DNA of 10,947 bases. Origin: an uncultured Eubacteriales bacterium (lineage in GTDB: Bacteria > Bacillota > Clostridia > Lachnospirales > Anaerotignaceae). Location of the stretch: NCBI GenBank assembly GCA_934552695.1, contig CAKTER010000042.1:1-10947 (forward strand). Reading direction: 5' to 3'. Shown in pieces: positions 1,140-8,661 of the stretch (position 1 is its first letter; each line of letters starts with the position of its first letter). A program made the position numbers and the translations under genes. The notes below the pieces were generated by a model. That model searched no databases. It worked only from the letters and a program-made list of their open reading frames with translations, and was not told where the DNA came from.

Positions 1140-1655
1140 TTAGAGCTTTGCCCAGGCGGCCTCGTAGGCAGCTTTGGTCGCCTTGTCAAAGCAGACAAGG
1201 CGGACTTCCTCGGGCAGGGAATGTTTATCCAAAAAATCGGCAATGGCGTTAACGGCAATTTCTGCTGCCTGATCCACCGGGAACCGGTATACGCCGGTGC
1301 TGATGGAGGGAAAAGCAATGGTGCGGCAGTGATGGGAGGCGGCCAGCTTGAGGCATTCCAGATAGCAGCTGGCCAAAAGCTCTCGTTCCTGGTCGAACCC
1401 GCCGCGCCAGATGGGGCCCGGCGTGTGGATAATCCAAGAGGCCGGCAACCGATAGCCCCGGGTAATCTTGGCTTGCCCGGTTTTGCAGCCGTTTAAAGTG
1501 CGGCATTCCTCAATCAGCCGGGGGCCTGCCGCCCGGTGAATGGCGCCGTCCACCCCGCCGCCGCCCAGCAGAGAGGTGTTGGCAGCATTTACAATGGCAT
1601 CGGTGGATTGTTTGGTAATGTCGCCCAGCAGAATCACAATGCGTTGTTTGTCCAT
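1140..1655 (-). CDS. Macro-domain O-acetyl-ADP-ribose deacetylase / ADP-ribosyl hydrolase (YmdB-like)
   Basis: A 171-residue single-domain macro protein of the MacroD/YmdB group. Members bind ADP-ribose, deacetylate O-acetyl-ADP-ribose and can remove mono-ADP-ribose from proteins. Signatures in order are GDIT (11-14), NAAN (23-26), the glycine-rich [10 protein letters not shown] loop (31-40) that holds the distal ribose, HTPGP (77-81) and the phosphate-binding STGVYRFP (119-126). Length and motif order match full-length YmdB-type proteins, and Asn26 and Asp36, the residues normally linked to catalysis, are present. The ATG at 1655 is preceded by AAAGGCGG about 9 nt upstream. It is transcribed alone, convergent with the HD gene and divergent from the membrane protein/M23 pair. 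The physiological target cannot be read from the sequence. Confidence 0.93.
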
Positions 1656-1710: not shown

Positions 1711-1776
1711 CAGTTTTATAAAAAAGGGTATATGGCTTTGGGGCTTGCCATATATTTTCAGCAGGGAGGGATGGAC

Positions 1777-2169
1777 ATGGAGCAAAAACGGCGGCCTGCG
1801 GCGTATCGGCCTCAGCGGCGGTATGCTCGTCCCAGTAGCGAGGAGCTGCTGCAAAAGAGACGGGAGCGGCTGTTTACCCAAGCGCTGCTGGCGGCGGTGC
1901 TGTTGGCAGGGGCTTTTATTTTGGCAAAACTGCCGGGGGAAAGGGCCCGCCTTTGGCGGGAAAAAGCGGCCCAGACCCTGGCCGGGGACGAAAGCGGCCG
2001 GGCTATGCAGGTATTCGAAAGCCTGTCGGAGCGGTGGACGGAGCCAAAGCCCACAGAGGAGCTTGAGGCAGCGCCCTTGTCGGGAGGGGCAGGGACGGAA
2101 TCGCTGGTAACGGAGAGCGCCGGTGCGGAGGACAGCGAAAAAAACGGAGTAGCGCCGGAGAAACCGTAA
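1777..2169 (+). CDS. Single-pass membrane protein; likely N-terminal part of the M23 peptidase encoded in the next frame
   Basis: A 130-residue product with a strongly basic N terminus (about 1-31), one hydrophobic segment at about 32-50 (LFTQALLAAVLLAGAFILAKL) and an acidic, low-complexity Ala/Glu/Gly/Ser tail. Charge placement predicts N-in, C-out topology, as in SpoIIQ-like membrane-anchored M23 proteins. ATG 1771 is only 1-2 nt past the GGAGGG at 1765-1770, so ATG 1777, 6 nt away, is preferred. The zero frame ends at TAA 2167-2169, 14 nt before the M23 frame. No function is recognised for this segment alone. Its linker composition resembles the start of the downstream frame, and a slippery run at 2138-2144 could join them, so I read it as the anchor half of a split or frameshifted peptidase. 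Confidence 0.72.
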   Translation: MEQKRRPAAYRPQRRYARPSSEELLQKRRERLFTQALLAAVLLAGAFILAKLPGERARLWREKAAQTLAGDESGRAMQVFESLSERWTEPKPTEELEAAPLSGGAGTESLVTESAGAEDSEKNGVAPEKP

Positions 2170-2219
2170 GCGGCTGGGAGCGGGTGGTTTGGCAGGAAGC
2201 CCAAACGGTGGCTCCGGCG
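2127..2219 (+). promoter_or_regulatory. Putative -1 ribosomal frameshift signal
   Basis: Three elements are seen. GGAGG at 2127-2131 lies 7 nt upstream of A AAA AAC at 2139-2145, whose zero-frame codons are AAA (2140) and AAC (2143), the correct phase for -1 slippage. After a 7-nt spacer comes a stem: CGCCGGAG (2153-2160) pairs with CTCCGGCG (2212-2219), and, beyond a 2x2 internal loop, ACCGT (2163-2167) pairs with ACGGT (2205-2209). A slip at this heptamer enters the M23 frame, which is open from 2067. The layout resembles the dnaX recoding site. Whether it works in the cell is inference; an A-run indel or sequencing error is the main alternative. Confidence 0.5.
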
Positions 2220-2798
2220 GAAGCAATCCCGGCCTTTGCCTACTACCGGGAGGAGGTTCCGGCGGCGGAGACCGAAGCGAAATCAGAAGAAGCGGAAAAC
2301 CCCGGCCCGGCGGCGGACAGAGCCGGGGAACCGGAGGCAGCGTTGGAAGCCGGGGAGCAGTGGCTGAACCCGGTGTGGGGGACGGTGACCTCCTCCTGCG
2401 GTGGGCGGCAAAACCCCCTGACCCATACTTGGGAGCTACACAACGGCTTGGACATTGCGCTGCCCGAGGGAACGGAGGTGGCGGCGGTGAAGTCCGGGGT
2501 AGTGACGGAATGCCGCACGTCCCCGTCCTTTGGCAAGCTGGTCAAGTTCCGGACCGACGATGGGTATACGGTGATGTACGCCCACCTTTCGGAAATTTTA
2601 GTCGCCGAGGGGGAGCGGGTGGCTCAGGGGGCGATTGTCGCCCGTTCCGGCAGCACCGGCTGGAGCACCGGGCCCCACCTGCATTACAGCCTGTGGAAGG
2701 ATGGTCAGCTGCTGGATCCGCTGGCGTTTTTGTATTTGCCGGTGACGGGGGAGGTGGCGGCGGAGTATGCCCGGCGAGGCGAGACTATGCCGGAATGA
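2184..2798 (+). CDS. M23 (LytM/SpoIIQ-like) metallopeptidase domain protein
   Basis: The C-terminal domain (about residues 60-185 of 204) is an M23 zinc endopeptidase fold, which cuts peptide cross-links in peptidoglycan outside the membrane. Key residues are present: His86 and Asp90 in HNGLD, His134 in YAHL, and His165/His167 in GPHLHY, so the site looks catalytically intact. Residues 1-59 are an acidic Ala/Glu/Pro linker. The only start in this frame is GTG 2184, with GGGAG at 2176-2180 just 3 nt away, and the product would lack a signal peptide or membrane segment, odd for a cell-wall enzyme. The frame is open back to 2067 and overlaps the preceding gene, whose membrane anchor it appears to need. 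Fused by a -1 slip at 2139-2145 the protein would be 340 residues, with zinc-site residues at 222, 226 and 303. It resembles sporulation peptidases, but no spo gene lies nearby. Confidence 0.88.
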   Translation: MVWQEAQTVAPAEAIPAFAYYREEVPAAETEAKSEEAENPGPAADRAGEPEAALEAGEQWLNPVWGTVTSSCGGRQNPLTHTWELHNGLDIALPEGTEVAAVKSGVVTECRTSPSFGKLVKFRTDDGYTVMYAHLSEILVAEGERVAQGAIVARSGSTGWSTGPHLHYSLWKDGQLLDPLAFLYLPVTGEVAAEYARRGETMPE

Positions 2799-2873: not shown

Positions 2874-3968
2874 TTACCCCAAAAACTCTCGCAAGGAAGC
2901 CAGCAGGGCTTCGTTTTGCTCCGGCAGCTGAATGCAGAACCGCAGATAGCTTTCGTCCAAAAAGGTGAAGCTGGCGGCGTCCCGTACCAGCATTTTTCGG
3001 CGGATGAGCCGGTCGGTAATGGCGGCGGCGGTGATTTTTTGGGTTAGCAGCCGGATCAGGATAAAGTTGGAGGCGGTGGGATAGACCTTTACCGTATCCC
3101 AGCTTTTCAGCTCGGCCAGCAGCTTTTTCCGTTCCGATAGAATCAGCGCCCGGGTCTGCTGCATGAACTCCTTTTCCGAAAACAGGGTTTCCCCGGCAAA
3201 GGCGGCCAGGCTGTTGACGCTCCAAGGGTCTTTTTTGCGGGCCAGGGCCTCCCGCAGGGGTTGGCCGCCGCACACACCATAGCCCAGCCGCAAGCCCGGA
3301 GCGGCAAAAAACTTGGAGATCCCCCGAATGACAAAGAGGTTGTCGAACTCCCGGGTTAGGGGGATGGCACAGAGAGAGGACAGGTCATCGGCAAACTCGA
3401 TATAGGTTTCGTCCACCAGCACGGCAGTGTGATTGGCTTGGCAGTGAGTCAAAATCTCTCGGAGCTGGGGGACGGTGACGGCGGTGCCGGTGGGGTTGTT
3501 GGGATTGCACATCACAAACAAATCGGTTTCCGGGGTAAGCGCCGCCAGCAGGGCAGGCAGATTCAGCCGGAAATCGTCCTCCTCTTTCAGGGGGAAGTAG
3601 GTAAAGCTCCCGCCGCAAACCCGGACGCTGTTTTCGTACTCCGAATAGGCCGGGCCCAAAATCAGGGCGCACCGGGGGCAAAGGGCCCCGATAAAGCCGG
3701 AAATCAGCTCGGTAGAGCCGTTGCCTACCACAATGGTTTCCGGGTCGGTGCCGGTGTAGCGGCCAATGCTTTCCCGCAGCTTGCGATAGCCCTTGTCGGG
3801 GTAACGGCTAACCAAAGCAATGTGCTCGGCCAGGGCCCGGGCGGTATGGGGCGGGAACCCCAAGGGGTTTACATTCCCCGAAAAGTCGATGATTTGGTCT
3901 TTGGGGATGCCGTAGGCGGCTTCTACGGCGTCCAAATCGCCGCCGTGCTTGTGCGTAAGCTCGTTCAT
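2874..3968 (-). CDS. CobD/HisC-family PLP-dependent aminotransferase or decarboxylase
   Basis: A 364-residue fold-type I PLP enzyme of the class I/II aminotransferase family. The N terminus (HGGDLDAVEAAYGIP followed by DFSGNVNPLG) is typical of L-threonine-O-3-phosphate decarboxylase (CobD), which makes the aminopropanol arm of cobalamin; histidinol-phosphate aminotransferase (HisC) is the closest alternative. PLP-site residues are visible: Asn159 in NPNNPTG (155-161), Asp186 and Tyr189 in DETYIEF, the Schiff-base Lys219 in GISKFFAAPG, and Arg227. An ATG lies 21 nt further upstream, but AGAAGGA (plus strand 3974-3980) is 5 nt before ATG 3968, so 3968 is used. It is the second gene of an operon, 29 nt after the 515-residue gene, and is closed by a terminator. 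No other cobalamin or histidine genes are visible, so the exact reaction is open. Confidence 0.8.
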   Translation of the reverse strand: MNELTHKHGGDLDAVEAAYGIPKDQIIDFSGNVNPLGFPPHTARALAEHIALVSRYPDKGYRKLRESIGRYTGTDPETIVVGNGSTELISGFIGALCPRCALILGPAYSEYENSVRVCGGSFTYFPLKEEDDFRLNLPALLAALTPETDLFVMCNPNNPTGTAVTVPQLREILTHCQANHTAVLVDETYIEFADDLSSLCAIPLTREFDNLFVIRGISKFFAAPGLRLGYGVCGGQPLREALARKKDPWSVNSLAAFAGETLFSEKEFMQQTRALILSERKKLLAELKSWDTVKVYPTASNFILIRLLTQKITAAAITDRLIRRKMLVRDAASFTFLDESYLRFCIQLPEQNEALLASLREFLG

Positions 3969-3997
3969 AAAAATCCTTCTTTCTGGCAAAGGCAGAG

Positions 3998-5545
3998 TCA
4001 GTTGGTGTATTCGTACAGCGTTCTTTCGTATTCCGAAAGGGCCGGGCTTTGGTCGATGAGCCGGGGATAGCGGATGCGGGCCCGGCCCGGGGCGCAGGCC
4101 TCCAAGGTGATTTGCAGGGCCGGGCTCTCGGGGGCCAACGAGCGATAGGTTAGGTGGTCGCCCACAGTTAGGGCCAGCTCTGCCAAAGGGCAGTCGGGGC
4201 TACGGCGAATACGCAAACGCCCCTTTTTTTGTGGGCTAAATTCCTGCTCCCCGCTGCGGAAGCAATAGCCTTCCTCCGGGTCAAAGTCGAACAAATCGGC
4301 CAGCTCCTGATGGAGGTCGCACAGAGGCAGGTCGCCGGGCCATTGGAAACGCTTCCAAAACTCCGGCGTTTCGCTGTATTGCAAGCGCAGGGTATATATG
4401 GTGGTTTCCTGCTGGATGCGGTCGATTTCCCGCTCCGGGGCGTCCTCCGCCTCGGCGGTTAAGTGGTAGGCCTGCCAAATATCCCGCAAGGGCAGCAGCG
4501 GCGGCATTTTTTGGTAAGGGGGCCGGGCGTTTTGGGAGGGGAATAGCTCCCGGCCCAGCAGGGTGTGGTCAAACAGCAGACACAGAGAAAAGGCTTCCAG
4601 CGAGGCGTTGGGGTCGATGGGCAGGCTGTCGCACACATAGTTTAGCTCGTCCAAAAAATTGTAGTGCTGGTAATACAGCGGGTTGATGAGCCGCAGATAA
4701 TAGCCGAAGGGCGTGATGAGCCAACGGTCCAGCATGGCCCCCAAATGCAGAACAATGTTGTTAAAGTAGGGGTCTTTTCCGGCGGCCGCCTCCGGCGAGG
4801 AGGGGTCGAGGCCCATGGACATGTATTGATAGCAACCGGTCAGCAGTTCGTTTAAGGGCATTCGCTCGGTGAGGGCAGTGCGGAACAGCTCCCCGGGATT
4901 GCCGGGCTCCAAATAGACAAAAATATCCTGAAAGTGGGCCACGGCGTTTTCCAAGGCTGCCGAAATAAGCCGCTGCCAGCGGGCCGTGACCGGCAGGTGG
5001 AAAAAGTCCCCACCCTCCGGGGCCGGATGCAGCAGACGGCGGCCAATGGCGGGCAGGGGGGCCAAAAGCCCCAGCCGTTGGGCTACCTCGCCCAAAAATT
5101 CGGCATAAAAAGGGTCGGTTCGACTTAGCCGAGGGATGAGGGACGCCAAAAAGCCGGCAGTCAGCTGGCCCCGGTCGGTGCATTCGGCATAGGGGGCCGC
5201 TGCTTCCCACAGCCTTTGCAGGTCACCAAACACCGGGTGGTTTTCCAGAGTGTAGCGGCACAGACGGTAGCCGATGGCAAGGGCTCCCGTCTCGTCGGTG
5301 GAAAATACGGGCAGGGCGGCGGTGTACCCGTCCCCGCTGTAAGCCGTGGCGATGAGGTTGTTGGGGGACAAAATGCTTTTATCCAACAGAGGGCTGGCGG
5401 CCCACTTGCGAAACAAAGTGGGAGCCACCCGCAACAGCCGGGGCTTTTCGCAGGGCTCCAAATTTTGATACAGGGCGGTAAAGCCCTGAGTGAAAATATC
5501 TAAAAATGGTTGACAGGCAGCGTGGGGCACAAAGGTTTCGGCCAT
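3998..5545 (-). CDS. Conserved-looking protein of unknown function with possible pRiA4b ORF3-like C-terminal domain
   Basis: A 515-residue protein I do not recognise as a whole. It has no signal peptide or clear membrane segment and should be cytoplasmic. Residues 1 to about 360 look mainly helical, with aromatic-rich stretches such as GYYLRLINPLYYQHYNFLDE. From about residue 382 the pattern YTLRLQY, then FWKRFQWPGD, then LCDLHQELADLF resembles the pRiA4b ORF-3-like domain (usual form: P-x-WRR-x-x-VP then LHxxIQ), here diverged; this is recognition by eye only. Base composition and codon use match the neighbours, arguing against recent transfer. ATG 5545 has AAAGGA about 8 nt upstream. It is the first gene of a leftward operon with the CobD/HisC-like enzyme, from a promoter at about 5585-5613. 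The link to that enzyme is unexplained. Confidence 0.75.
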   Translation of the reverse strand: MAETFVPHAACQPFLDIFTQGFTALYQNLEPCEKPRLLRVAPTLFRKWAASPLLDKSILSPNNLIATAYSGDGYTAALPVFSTDETGALAIGYRLCRYTLENHPVFGDLQRLWEAAAPYAECTDRGQLTAGFLASLIPRLSRTDPFYAEFLGEVAQRLGLLAPLPAIGRRLLHPAPEGGDFFHLPVTARWQRLISAALENAVAHFQDIFVYLEPGNPGELFRTALTERMPLNELLTGCYQYMSMGLDPSSPEAAAGKDPYFNNIVLHLGAMLDRWLITPFGYYLRLINPLYYQHYNFLDELNYVCDSLPIDPNASLEAFSLCLLFDHTLLGRELFPSQNARPPYQKMPPLLPLRDIWQAYHLTAEAEDAPEREIDRIQQETTIYTLRLQYSETPEFWKRFQWPGDLPLCDLHQELADLFDFDPEEGYCFRSGEQEFSPQKKGRLRIRRSPDCPLAELALTVGDHLTYRSLAPESPALQITLEACAPGRARIRYPRLIDQSPALSEYERTLYEYTN

Positions 5546-5703: not shown

Positions 5704-5736
5704 ACAGTTGTTTGCAAGGAAAGAACAGGGGGCCCT

Positions 5737-6180
5737 ATGAAGGTAGATAAAAATTATTACATTGTGGATAAAAACGTACTTCCCGAGGTTTTTTTAAAGG
5801 TCGTGGAAGCCAAGGGCCTGTTGGATAGCGGAAAGGAACGGACGGTACAGGCGGCGGTAGCCCGCGTAGGGATTAGCCGCAGCGTGTTTTACAAGTACCG
5901 GGACGCCATTTTCCCGTTGTACGAGCATTCCCGGGGCCGCACGATTACCATGTCGGCCAATCTGGAGGATAAATCCGGGCTGCTTTCCACGGTACTCAAT
6001 CAAATTGCCGGTGTGGGGGCCAATATTTTGACCATCCACCAGACCATCCCCATCAATGGCGTGGCCAACTTGACGGTGACCATTGAAACGGCGGATATGC
6101 AAGGGGATATTGGTCAGCTGGTCGAAACGGTGGAGGCGCTGGACGGCATCCAGTCGTTTAAGATTATTGCAAGGGAGTGA
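5737..6180 (+). CDS. HTH-like plus ACT-domain protein (PheB / UPF0735 type)
   Basis: A 147-residue protein with two parts. Residues 34-62 (including AAVARVGISRSVFYKYRDAIF) look like a helix-turn-helix of TetR-like shape. Residues 69-146 form an ACT domain with the ligand-loop pattern EDKSGLLSTVLNQIAGVGANI and a second half ending in IQSFKIIARE. ACT domains bind amino acids and control biosynthetic enzymes or regulators. This arrangement matches the PheB/UPF0735 family, often found beside pheA or hom in Firmicutes. ATG 5737 has AGGGGG 4 nt upstream; upstream in-frame ATGs lie before or within the promoter and are rejected. It leads the operon, and its stop overlaps the hom ribosome binding site, so translation is probably coupled. 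Role as amino acid sensor, in trans on Hom or on its own promoter, is inference. Confidence 0.88.
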   Translation: MKVDKNYYIVDKNVLPEVFLKVVEAKGLLDSGKERTVQAAVARVGISRSVFYKYRDAIFPLYEHSRGRTITMSANLEDKSGLLSTVLNQIAGVGANILTIHQTIPINGVANLTVTIETADMQGDIGQLVETVEALDGIQSFKIIARE

Positions 6181-6184
6181 GCGT

Positions 6185-7423
6185 ATGGCAGAGGTGGAGA
6201 ATGCTGTGGTGAACATTGCCATTTTGGGTTATGGCACGGTTGGCAGCGGCGTGTATCAGATTGTAAACGAAAACCAGGCGGTGCTGCGGCGCAAGTGCGG
6301 CAAAGACCTGGTTGTAAAATATGTATTGGACCTGCGGGAGTTTCCCGGTGACCCGGTGCAGGAGATTTTGACCCATCGGTTCGAGGATGTTTTGGAGGAC
6401 GATTCCGTGCGGCTGGTGGTGGAGGTTATGGGCGGGGTGGAGCCGGCCAACACCTTTGTGACCGCCTGCTTGGGCAAAGGCAAAAGCGTGGTTACCTCCA
6501 ACAAGGAATTGGTAGCCCGCCACGGCAGCCGGCTCATCCGGTTGGCCCGGGAGAACCATTGCAATTTCCTGTTTGAGGCCAGCGTAGGCGGCGGTATCCC
6601 CATCATCCGGCCGCTCATTTCCTCGCTGACCGCCGACGATATTTTGGAGATTAAGGGCATTGTGAACGGAACCACCAACTACATTTTGTCGGAAATGACC
6701 CGGTATGGCAAAACCTTTGAAGAGGTGCTTGCCTTGGCGCAGGAATTCGGCTATGCCGAAAAGGACCCGGCAGCGGATGTAGAGGGCTACGATGCCTGCC
6801 GGAAGGACGCCATTTTGTGTTCCCTGGCCTTTGGGAAAACCGTGGATTATCAGGAAATCCCCACCGAGGGGATTACCCATATTTCGGCGAAGGACATTGA
6901 ATACGCCAAGGCCATGGGCCGCACCGTTAAGCTGCTGGCCTATGGGAAAAAGAGCGAAAAGGGGGTAACGGCCCGGGTGGCCCCTTATTTGTTGCCCGAT
7001 GACCATCCCTTAAGCCGGGTGGACGGCGTGTTTAACGCTGTGTTTATAAAAGGGAATATGCTGGGAGACACCATGTATTATGGCCGGGGGGCCGGAAAGC
7101 TGCCCACCGCCAGCGCCGTCGTCTCGGATGTGGTGGATGCCATTAAGCATTTTGGCCGGAATATCATCATCGATTGGTCGGAAGAGAAACAGTCCGTGCT
7201 GCCTACCGACGCTGTAGAAACGTGCCAGTTGATTCGTATCTCCGAATCCCTGCTGCCCCTGGCCCGGCAGCTGTTCCCCCAGGCAGAGGTAGTGGATTTG
7301 CCGCAGCCCGACGGGGAATTGGCCGTAGTGACCGGTGTTGAGAGCGAGCATAGCGTTGCCGAAAAAATCCAAAAGCTGGCCGCCGCAGGCACGGTGCTGG
7401 GCGCCATTCGGATGCAGGACTGA
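6185..7423 (+). CDS. hom: Homoserine dehydrogenase
   Basis: Reduces aspartate 4-semialdehyde to homoserine with NAD(P)H, the branch point toward threonine and methionine; cytoplasmic. The 412 residues show the Rossmann loop GYGTVGSG (15-22), TSNKELVA (Asn106, Lys107), GGGIPI (135-140), NGTTNYIL (161-168) and the catalytic block [17 protein letters not shown] ending at Lys207. Residues about 345-412 take the place of the usual C-terminal ACT domain but are short and lack the D-x-x-G-x-L ligand loop, so feedback by threonine through this domain may be weak or absent. ATG 6185 is 4 nt after the upstream ACT gene stop, with AAGGGAG (6171-6177) inside that gene's end; an in-frame ATG at 6083 would overlap it by 98 nt and is rejected. 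Aspartokinase follows 17 nt downstream. Confidence 0.96.
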
Positions 7424-7440
7424 TTGAAGGAGGAAACCTT

Positions 7441-8661
7441 GTGTTAATTGTACAAAAATATGGCGGTAGCTCGGTGGCAGACCGGGAACGGGTCTACAAC
7501 GTAGCCAACCGCATTGTGGAAACGTATAAAGCCGGGAATCAGGTGGTGGTGGTACTTTCGGCTCAGGGGGATACCACCGACGACCTGATTGAAAAGGCCC
7601 GGGAGATTTCGGCCAACCCCTCCCGCCGGGAAATGGATATGCTGCTGTCCACGGGGGAGCAAATTTCGGTGGCGTTGATGGCGATGGCCATTCACGAGCT
7701 GGGGTATCCGGCTGTTTCGCTGAATGCGGAGCAGGTAGGGATTGACACCACGGCGGCTTACAGTAACGCCCGCATTAAAAATGTCCGCAGTCAGCGGCTG
7801 GAACAGGAGCTGGCCCGGAATAATATTGTGATTGTGACTGGGTTCCAGGGCATGAACAAGTACGACGATGTGACCACCCTGGGCCGGGGCGGGTCCGACA
7901 CCACGGCGGTGGCCCTGGCAGCAGCCCTACAGGCGGATTTATGCGAGATTTATACCGATGTGGACGGTGTGTATACGGCCGATCCCCGGGTAGTAAAGCA
8001 TGCGAAAAAGCTGGATGTAATCAGCTACGACGAAATGCTGGAAATGGCCACGTTGGGGGCGAAGGTGCTCCACAACCGCTCGGTGGAGCTGGCCAAAAAG
8101 TTTAATGTCAATTTGGTGGTGCGCTCCAGCCTGACCCGGGCGGAAGGCACGGTGGTGAAGGAGGTAGACGATACCATGGAACGGATGCTGGTAAATGGTG
8201 TGGCAGGCGATAGCGATATTTCCCGGATTTCGTTACTGCGGATTAAGGATGAACCGGGCCGGGCCTATGAAATTTTTTCGGCTCTGGCCAAGGAAAAGGT
8301 CAGCGTGGATGTGATTTTGCAGTCCATTGGCCGGGATGGAACCAAGGATATTTCCTTTACCGTAGCCCGGGACGATATGCAGCTGGCGCTGGATACGCTG
8401 GAAAAGAACAAGGCCCGGTTGGGCTTTGAAGCGATGAACCATAACGAAAACGTAGCCAAGCTTTCGATTGTGGGCTCGGGGATGGCAACCAATGCCGGGG
8501 TGGCCAGCACCATGTTTGAGGCGCTGTACGACGCCGGAATCAACATTATGATGATTTCTACCTCCGAAATCCGGATTTCGGTGCTGATTGATGCCAAGGA
8601 GCTGGATCGGGGGATGGCGGCCGTTCACGACCGGTTCATCCGGGAGAACAGCCGGTTTTAA
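7441..8661 (+). CDS. lysC: Aspartokinase (alpha subunit)
   Basis: Phosphorylates aspartate at the entry to the lysine, threonine and methionine pathway. The 406 residues contain KYGGSSVAD (6-14) at the nucleotide site, STGEQ (70-74) contacting aspartate, the GRGGSDTTA segment, [13 protein letters not shown], and two C-terminal ACT regions: one from about 260 with [14 protein letters not shown], one from about 340 with [19 protein letters not shown] and ending in EIRISVLID. Length and design match Bacillus aspartokinase II, a lysine-inhibited type. GTG 7441 has AAGGAGG at 7427-7433, 7 nt upstream. It is the last gene of the ACT-hom-lysC transcript, 17 nt after hom, with a terminator 31 nt beyond its stop. 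Which amino acid inhibits it cannot be read directly. Confidence 0.96.
8158..8178 (+). promoter_or_regulatory. Internal Shine-Dalgarno and start codon within lysC
   Basis: AAGGAGGT (8158-8165), complementary to the 16S rRNA tail, is followed 10 nt later by ATG 8176, in frame with lysC and corresponding to codon 246. A second in-frame ATG is at 8185. The position matches the internal start recalled for Bacillus subtilis lysC. Confidence 0.55.
8176..8661 (+). CDS. lysC: Predicted aspartokinase beta subunit from internal start in lysC
   Basis: An in-frame product of 161 residues identical to the C-terminal part of aspartokinase, covering both ACT regions and no catalytic domain. In Bacillus subtilis, aspartokinase II is an alpha2-beta2 complex whose beta chain (about 163 residues) comes from an internal start at codon 246 of the same gene; here the codon number is the same and a full Shine-Dalgarno lies in place. 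The beta chain would act as a regulatory partner that binds the feedback amino acid. Existence is inferred from the start site and the family parallel, not demonstrated. Confidence 0.5.

What the first reader, a model, noticed from the sequence alone, without database searches (positions are those of the whole stretch)
2067..2219. Possible programmed -1 frameshift joining a membrane anchor to an M23 peptidase
Seen directly: the anchor frame (1777-2169) and the peptidase frame (open from 2067) overlap; A AAA AAC sits in the correct phase at 2139-2145; a GC-rich two-part stem (2153-2167 with 2205-2219) starts after a 7-nt spacer; GGAGG lies 7 nt upstream of the heptamer. Protein character also switches here: before the heptamer only the first frame has the acidic linker, after it only the second does. 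This is the same set of parts as the dnaX recoding site. A slip gives a 340-residue type II membrane peptidase plus a 130-residue anchor-only product, which could set a ratio of the two. I know of no described frameshift in this peptidase family. An A8-to-A7 indel, phase variation or sequencing error would look the same.
Basis: partly seen in the sequence, partly recalled or inferred. Interest (0 to 1): 0.78.

Follow-up and report, generated by a model that had tools for sequence, protein, structure and literature searches.

The report
Conserved frameshift in membrane peptidase gene
A gut-type Clostridia bacterium and many of its relatives encode one membrane-anchored cell-wall enzyme in two different reading frames, so the ribosome apparently must slip by one letter to make the whole protein, and different lineages use different slip signals to do it.

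Summary
In detail: overlapping anchor and M23 frames, an in-phase A AAA AAC, GGAGG 7 nt upstream and a two-part stem 7 nt downstream. It is not an isolated indel. Of 116 loci examined (window included), 95 carry the anchor and the M23 domain in different frames. In 44 of 95 the peptidase frame has no ATG/GTG/TTG before the domain.

Slip signals follow clades. 33 of 34 loci needing +1 end in CCC TAG or CCC TGA; this class has an SD-like element close upstream and no downstream structure. Of 61 needing -1, 26 (window included) have A AAA AAN, 20 of these with strong downstream structure; 15 have a G-run; 20 are unresolved. Single-frame orthologues exist, and +1 products align with four of five compared without a gap at the junction. 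Many loci lie at the clostridial spoIVFA position, before an M50 protease gene.

Best reading: conserved programmed frameshifting in an anchored M23 protein, with repeated exchange of the signal. The window is a -1, dnaX-like version among +1 relatives. No experiment was possible.

The parts
1763..1769 (+). AGGGAGG, likely ribosome binding site of the anchor frame, 7 nt before ATG 1777
   Evidence: sequence
1777..2169 (+). zero frame: basic N-terminus, one membrane segment, acidic linker; 130 aa product if no slip
   Evidence: homologues P0123-P0126
2067..2798 (+). peptidase (-1) frame, open over the overlap 2067-2166 and on to the stop
   Evidence: Pfam M23 E 4.7e-30
2127..2131 (+). GGAGG, internal SD-like element, 7 nt before the heptamer (duplex energy of the region -9.5 kcal/mol)
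2139..2145 (+). A AAA AAC slippery heptamer in the anchor phase; after a -1 slip reading resumes with CGG 2145-2147
   Evidence: E-K-N invariant in 5 anchors
2153..2167 (+). 5' arms of the two-part stem (2153-2160 and 2163-2167), 7-nt spacer from the heptamer
2205..2219 (+). 3' arms of the stem (2205-2209 and 2212-2219)
2167..2169 (+). zero-frame stop TAA; CCG TAA here lies about where relatives have CCC TAG (compared by eye)
2148..2183 (+). -1 frame coding that lies before the first GTG (2184) of that frame: a diagnostic stretch for recoding
2436..2720 (+). M23 (LytM) domain with HxGxD and HxH metal-site motifs
   Evidence: residues 124-218 of P0001

Best explanation
The gene makes two proteins by programmed ribosomal frameshifting. 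Ribosomes that do not slip stop at 2169 and give a 130-residue membrane anchor. A fraction, slowed by the GGAGG:anti-SD contact upstream and the stem downstream, slip -1 on A AAA AAC and make a 340-residue type II membrane protein with an extracytoplasmic M23 domain. The same split is kept in many Clostridia, but the slip signal differs between clades: +1 on CCC TAG/TGA with a close SD (prfB-like), -1 on A AAA AAN with a downstream hairpin (dnaX-like), and probably -1 on a G-run. Shown here: the split, the signals, their conservation, the context and the single-frame orthologues. Inferred: that ribosomes slip, the ratio of products, and a role in septum or forespore envelope remodelling or in control of the neighbouring SpoIVFB-like protease.
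For: Split frames in 95 of 116 loci; the other 21 are 8 unrelated M23 genes dropped, 10 single-frame orthologues and 3 unclassified. 44 of 95 lack any ATG/GTG/TTG before the domain. Last sense codon CCC in 33 of 34 +1 loci against 29 of 4342 elsewhere in the same anchors; in 20 of these sites aligned, only CCCT is invariant among 51 columns. SD duplex before the 34 +1 sites -4.95 against -2.72 kcal/mol for other codons, p 5e-6. The 70 nt after A-type sites: mean z -2.56, 20 of 26 below -2, control windows 8 of 104; +1 sites 0 of 34 (controls 15 of 136); G sites 0 of 15 (controls 2 of 60). Compensatory pairs in two A-type clades. The most variable codon position changes frame at the site in three of four groups. 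+1 products align without a gap at the junction with four of five single-frame orthologues. Close kin of the window are split alike.
Against: No expression data. 20 of 61 -1 loci have no slip motif that I accept, and some keep a GTG that could serve reinitiation. The window's tree neighbours are +1 CCC TAG, so its A AAA AAC is not shared with them, and no DNA of its closest kin could be fetched. Five of 26 A-type loci show no clear structure (G087, G189, G016, G276, G066, z -1.1 to 0.4). For the A-type class the SD test is only p 0.053. In the A AAA AAC group the codon-position test downstream was flat (20/42, 24/43, 24/43), and for its hairpin shuffles reach the number of two-sided pairs in 346 of 500. 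G-type products align with their single-frame relative with gaps near the junction. A GTG with GGGAG before it lies at 2184 in the window.
Confidence: 0.88

Rival explanations
1. Two separate proteins: the ribosome ends at 2169 and restarts at GTG 2184, giving an anchor and a free M23 protein (translational coupling).
For: GTG 2184 begins 14 nt after the stop, with GGGAG 3 nt before it. 51 of 95 split loci have an ATG, GTG or TTG before the domain, 8 of them with a 5-base SD match. One -1 clade keeps a GTG in the overlap.
Against: 44 of 95 split loci have no ATG/GTG/TTG before the domain (rarer start codons were not tested). In the Anaerotignum-like +1 loci the codon after the shared P-S is GTG, GTA, GTT, TTA, ATT or CTG, an aliphatic residue rather than a kept start. 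It does not explain the CCC TAG sites or the heptamer-hairpin pairs. A free M23 protein would have no membrane segment; the nine class-wide single-frame proteins begin with one (by eye).
Confidence: 0.07
2. The window gene is broken by an indel or a sequencing error.
For: The site is an A7 run, and the window's frame relation (-1) differs from its tree neighbours (+1).
Against: Database relatives carry the same anchor end and the same short peptidase frame. Relatives at 53-54% end 11 residues after E-K-N. Metal-site motifs are intact. SD and stem are better than shuffles.
Confidence: 0.04
3. Transcriptional slippage on the A run supplies the other frame.
For: A-type sites are short A runs.
Against: The hairpin and the upstream SD are ribosomal signals (interpretation). 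Runs this short are recalled to be poor slippage sites. It cannot apply to CCC TAG or G sites.
Confidence: 0.05

Closest known systems
dnaX -1 frameshift
   Same: In-phase A-run heptamer, SD-like element upstream, hairpin downstream, two products from one gene (architecture of dnaX recalled).
   Different: Unrelated gene. In dnaX the longer product is the zero-frame one (recalled); here slipping adds the catalytic domain. The heptamer is A AAA AAC in the window.
prfB +1 frameshift
   Same: +1 slip at a sense codon before a stop with a close SD, as in the CCC TAG relatives (prfB layout recalled).
   Different: CCC UAG rather than CUU UGA; not a release factor gene; the stop is TAG in 33 of 34. 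The window itself is not of this type.
CCC_UGA +1 sites of Listeria phages and pheL
   Same: Peptidyl-tRNA-Pro slip on CCC before a stop (passages of PMC5009743).
   Different: Phage or leader-peptide genes and UGA; here a chromosomal envelope gene, CCC UAG in 32 of 33 CCC sites.
Clostridial LytM proteins at the spoIIQ and spoIVFA positions
   Same: Membrane-anchored LytM domain at the spoIVFA position, described as non-orthologous displacement (passages of PMC3533761).
   Different: The passages seen mention no recoding. The window copy is not in that gene neighbourhood.

Membership tests
programmed -1 ribosomal frameshifting (dnaX type) | slippery heptamer in phase within the frame overlap | tested here: met
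   window; 26 of 61 -1 loci, window included
programmed -1 ribosomal frameshifting (dnaX type) | downstream structure at short spacing | tested here: met
   window z -2.87; A class 20 of 26 below -2
programmed -1 ribosomal frameshifting (dnaX type) | upstream SD-like element | tested here: inconclusive
   window -9.5 kcal/mol; A class as a whole p 0.053
programmed -1 ribosomal frameshifting (dnaX type) | conservation of the split and signal in relatives | tested here: inconclusive
   split conserved; A AAA AAN conserved within other clades; in the window's own clade only E-K-N at protein level, and its tree neighbours use CCC TAG
programmed -1 ribosomal frameshifting (dnaX type) | both products observed | not testable with these tools
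   needs reporter or mass spectrometry
programmed +1 frameshifting at a stop (prfB type), relatives | slippery sense codon before stop, close SD | tested here: met
   33 of 34 CCC-stop; SD p 5e-6
programmed +1 frameshifting at a stop (prfB type), window | +1 frame relation and CCC-stop | tested here: not met
   window needs -1 and ends CCG TAA
Peptidase M23 | Pfam domain above cutoff and HxGxD/HxH | tested here: met
   104.1 bits against 28.7; motifs
SpoIVFA-position LytM protein | gene directly before spoIVFB in the minD-minE-rodA-mgsA cluster | tested here: not met
   not met in the window, which has a macro-domain gene upstream and a CobD-like gene downstream; met in 38 of 95 split loci for an M50 gene downstream
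SpoIIQ | NCBIfam SpoIIQ equivalog score | tested here: not met
   59.4 bits against cutoff 250

The most novel reading that the evidence does not exclude
Selection across this group keeps the anchored M23 protein under recoding control while the recoding signal itself is repeatedly exchanged (+1 CCC-stop, -1 A-run with hairpin, -1 G-run, and single frame). The product ratio, or coupling of the enzyme to the state of translation (for example RF1 or tRNA-Pro supply at CCC UAG) around sporulation, would then be the selected trait.
Probability: 0.4. Interest if true: 0.88.

Novelty: new variant of a known kind. Interest (0 to 1): 0.82.

Why it matters
Few conserved frameshift sites are known in non-mobile bacterial genes; dnaX and prfB are the textbook cases (recalled). 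Here one chromosomal envelope gene appears to need frameshifting across many Clostridia, with five changes between +1 and -1 types as the fewest on the tree as drawn, a tree with many weak forks. It is a natural experiment on why recoding is kept. It also explains why six named database entries among the 120 best hits are short 'M23 family metallopeptidase' proteins of 143-166 aa. [quoted passage not shown]

Tried and rejected
Rejected: indel or assembly error, pure reinitiation, transcriptional slippage (see rivals). Rejected by eye: intrinsic terminator, because the A-type hairpins printed are not followed by a clear U run. Led nowhere: no whole genome is held for the window; a plasmid search for near-identical DNA, a phage protein search and a viral-contig scan gave no close relative; the genome-contig scan gave 12 distant M23 genes; the order-wide search of 392 genomes found none closer than 67%. 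Whether the window lies inside or beside the 22-row +1 group is unresolved (p-AU 0.42).

Corrections and choices. One search did not turn minus-strand loci; misread seven single-frame loci; both were replaced. The final script accepts an anchor only if its stop lies no more than 6 nt before the peptidase frame opens, so overlap is partly built in; one search allowed 60 nt, and the only two rows I saw with the stop before the opening were misread single-frame loci (part of its output was cut). The window and G065, G222, G265 failed the script's thresholds and were set by hand or. HxGxD was used to place the domain, so its presence in 95 of 95 is partly by choice. Tree labels count 17 G, because G222 and G228 were later moved to unresolved. 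One search used a structure shifted by one column and was redone. For G060 and G091 the script took a later G-run than the TTG GGG GAG of their sisters. In one search, five of seven single-frame relatives of that clade were aligned (G176 and G268, near copies of G232, left out). An earlier count said 22 and 8; the output shows 23 needing +1 and 7 needing -1.

Dropped before counts: eight M23 genes judged unrelated by their N-termini, by eye (G138, G171, G178, G221, G229, G280, G283, G306). Three loci could not be classified (G093, G236, G264); G236 carries label A in the tree, from reading, but is not in the 26.

Full report
Observation. The anchor frame runs from ATG 1777 to TAA 2167-2169. 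The M23 frame is open from 2067 to 2798. A AAA AAC at 2139-2145 has the phase needed for a -1 slip. GGAGG 2127-2131 ends 7 nt before it. The RNA from 2146 to 2225 folds with stem arms 2153-2160/2212-2219 and 2163-2167/2205-2209, z -2.87; a 60-nt stretch that cuts off the 3' arm gives z -0.1. The M23 domain is a clear Pfam match (E 4.7e-30).

Not a private indel. A search of 5.8 billion proteins with the peptidase half, allowing 134-427 aa, gave 4662 hits; the 120 listed are all 138-204 aa. The closest, P0003, is 97% identical over 84% of the query and 204 aa long. With the anchor half as query, four relatives came back, all anchor-only. P0123 and P0124 end exactly as the window does. P0125 and P0126 (53-54% identity) keep E-K-N at the heptamer and end 11 residues after it. 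Their DNA could not be fetched, so codon-level conservation of the heptamer in the window's own clade is inferred.

The family is split. Genome searches of the order reached through locus L002 (101 of 295 genomes at E 1e-30) and of the family of one hit (50 of 58 at E 1e-25) gave 115 loci, 116 with the window. Eight were judged unrelated M23 genes, ten are single-frame orthologues, three could not be classified, and 95 have the anchor and the M23 domain in different frames. In these 95 the peptidase frame opens 7 to 418 nt before the anchor stop; the script's filter favours this (see Tried and rejected). In 44 of 95 no ATG, GTG or TTG lies in the peptidase frame before the domain: 20 of 26 A-type, 12 of 15 G-type, 4 of 34 +1, 8 of 20 unresolved. 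One split locus (G257) lies on a contig of 2,924,599 bases, the length listed for the longest contig of a protein named for Clostridium sp. MD294, which suggests the split also occurs in a well-assembled genome.

Signals. 34 loci need +1: 32 end CCC TAG, one CCC TGA, one TTT TAG. CCC makes up 29 of 4342 other codons of these anchors. In 20 of the sites aligned, only CCCT is invariant in 51 columns, with the next A and G at 90% or more. An SD-like stretch lies close upstream (p 5e-6) and no structure follows (0 of 34 below z -2). 61 loci need -1: 26 have A AAA AAN (11 A AAA AAA, 8 A AAA AAC, 5 A AAA AAG, 2 A AAA AAT), 15 a G-run, 20 none that I accept. After A-type sites the 70 nt are unusually structured: mean z -2.56, 20 of 26 below -2, control windows 8 of 104. 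Five of the 26 lie between -1.1 and 0.4. In two clades the hairpin starts 5 or 6 nt after the heptamer. In the A AAA AAA TAG clade (8 loci) all 72 cells of a 9-pair stem are paired, with two pairs changed on both sides and 3 of 500 shuffles as high on the covariation score. In the A AAA AAC/T clade (6 loci, 5 distinct) 95.4% of cells of 13 pairs are paired; two pairs are changed on both sides, a number that 346 of 500 shuffles reach, while 19 of 500 reach the covariation score. G-type sites show no downstream structure (0 of 15 below -2). The loci are related, so the counts are not independent trials.

Frame use. In two +1 groups and the A AAA AAA TAG group, the most variable codon position moves from the anchor frame to the peptidase frame at the site; in the last, the upstream signal is weak (22 against 19 and 13 of 37). 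The A AAA AAC group was flat downstream.

Product. In one clade, loci with CCC TAG sit beside single-frame orthologues. The +1 products of four loci align with five of these; at the junction there is no gap with four and one residue missing in G032. G-type products against G213 need gaps near the junction. Nine further single-frame proteins of 277-320 aa open frame came from a class-wide search (13 hits in 391 genomes); their order is not told.

Context and identity. In several of those nine loci and many split loci the gene lies in minD-minE-rodA-mgsA-[M23]-M50 protease-TIGR03960 radical SAM. Pfam and NCBIfam confirm MgsA, the FtsW/RodA family, peptidase M50 and TIGR03960 in examples. The names minD, minE and SpoIVFB are recalled; no SpoIVFB model matched. 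53 of 95 split loci have at least one of these neighbours and 38 have the M50 gene directly downstream. Several loci carry short flanks, and one reference per gene was used, so these are lower bounds. This is the position where clostridia are said to carry a LytM protein in place of SpoIVFA (passages of PMC3533761). The window has no such neighbours. SpoIIIAH is found in 54 of 58 genomes of one family, 53 over the cut-off, so that sporulation gene is common there. Seven loci of one clade have the radical SAM gene about 480-550 nt after the domain and no M50 match, so the role is not only control of that protease.

Evolution. On a tree of the M23 domain (116 rows, 142 columns, 48 of 113 inner branches open) the window falls in a supported set of 23 rows whose other 22 are all +1 CCC-stop. 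Inside or beside them is unresolved. The fewest changes are 13 among signal types, 6 between split and single frame, and 5 between +1 and -1; supported branches alone force fewer.

Literature. Ten searches with SpoIIQ, SpoIVFA, SpoIVFB, M23, Lachnospiraceae, sporulation and recoding terms listed no title or abstract start on recoding in this gene; one search listed 20 of 24 papers. Term searches gave no hit for peptidase, M23 or SpoI in PMC3711429, nor in the first 300,000 of 475,107 characters of PMC5009743. Of PMC4066793 I saw passages. The library lacks most subscription journals and preprints; supplements were not read.

Verdict. Programmed frameshifting in this gene family is very likely. 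The window is a -1, dnaX-like case. The reason for keeping it is open.

Noticed in passing
L087, L083, L091, L096 (G162, G286, G196, G154): A -1 clade ending GAA TAG CCG A in three and CGG TAA in G154, with no slippery motif and, in two of four, no usual start codon; the mechanism is unexplained.
   Followed up: partly
L107, L111, L123, L125, L138, L144, L146, L148 (X clade): Both frames of the overlap look conserved by eye (anchor end LW-D/E in most, peptidase frame G-T-V-G), with a GTG kept in most and A AAC CCN in six of eight; slip or reinitiation not decided.
   Followed up: partly
L089 (G258): Only +1 locus without a final CCC: ends TTT TAG, which could also slip +1.
   Followed up: no
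+1 loci: The stop at the +1 site is TAG in 33 of 34 and never TAA, while -1 loci use TAA in 26 of 61; a link to RF1 is possible, or a constraint on the next residue.
   Followed up: partly
L081, L079, L084, L086, L095, L080, L048: Clade with TTG GGG GAG keeps the split M23 gene but shows no M50 (spoIVFB-like) match between it and the radical SAM gene.
   Followed up: no
window 1140-1655 (-), 2874-3989 (-), 3998-5545 (-): Neighbours: macro-domain O-acetyl-ADP-ribose deacetylase-like gene, CobD-like aminotransferase just under its cutoff (279.2 against 290.55 bits), and a 515-aa protein with a PRiA4_ORF3 domain.
   Followed up: no
window 5734-8661 (+): ACT-domain protein followed by two plus-strand frames that look like homoserine dehydrogenase and aspartate kinase (names of the latter two recalled, not searched).
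   Followed up: no
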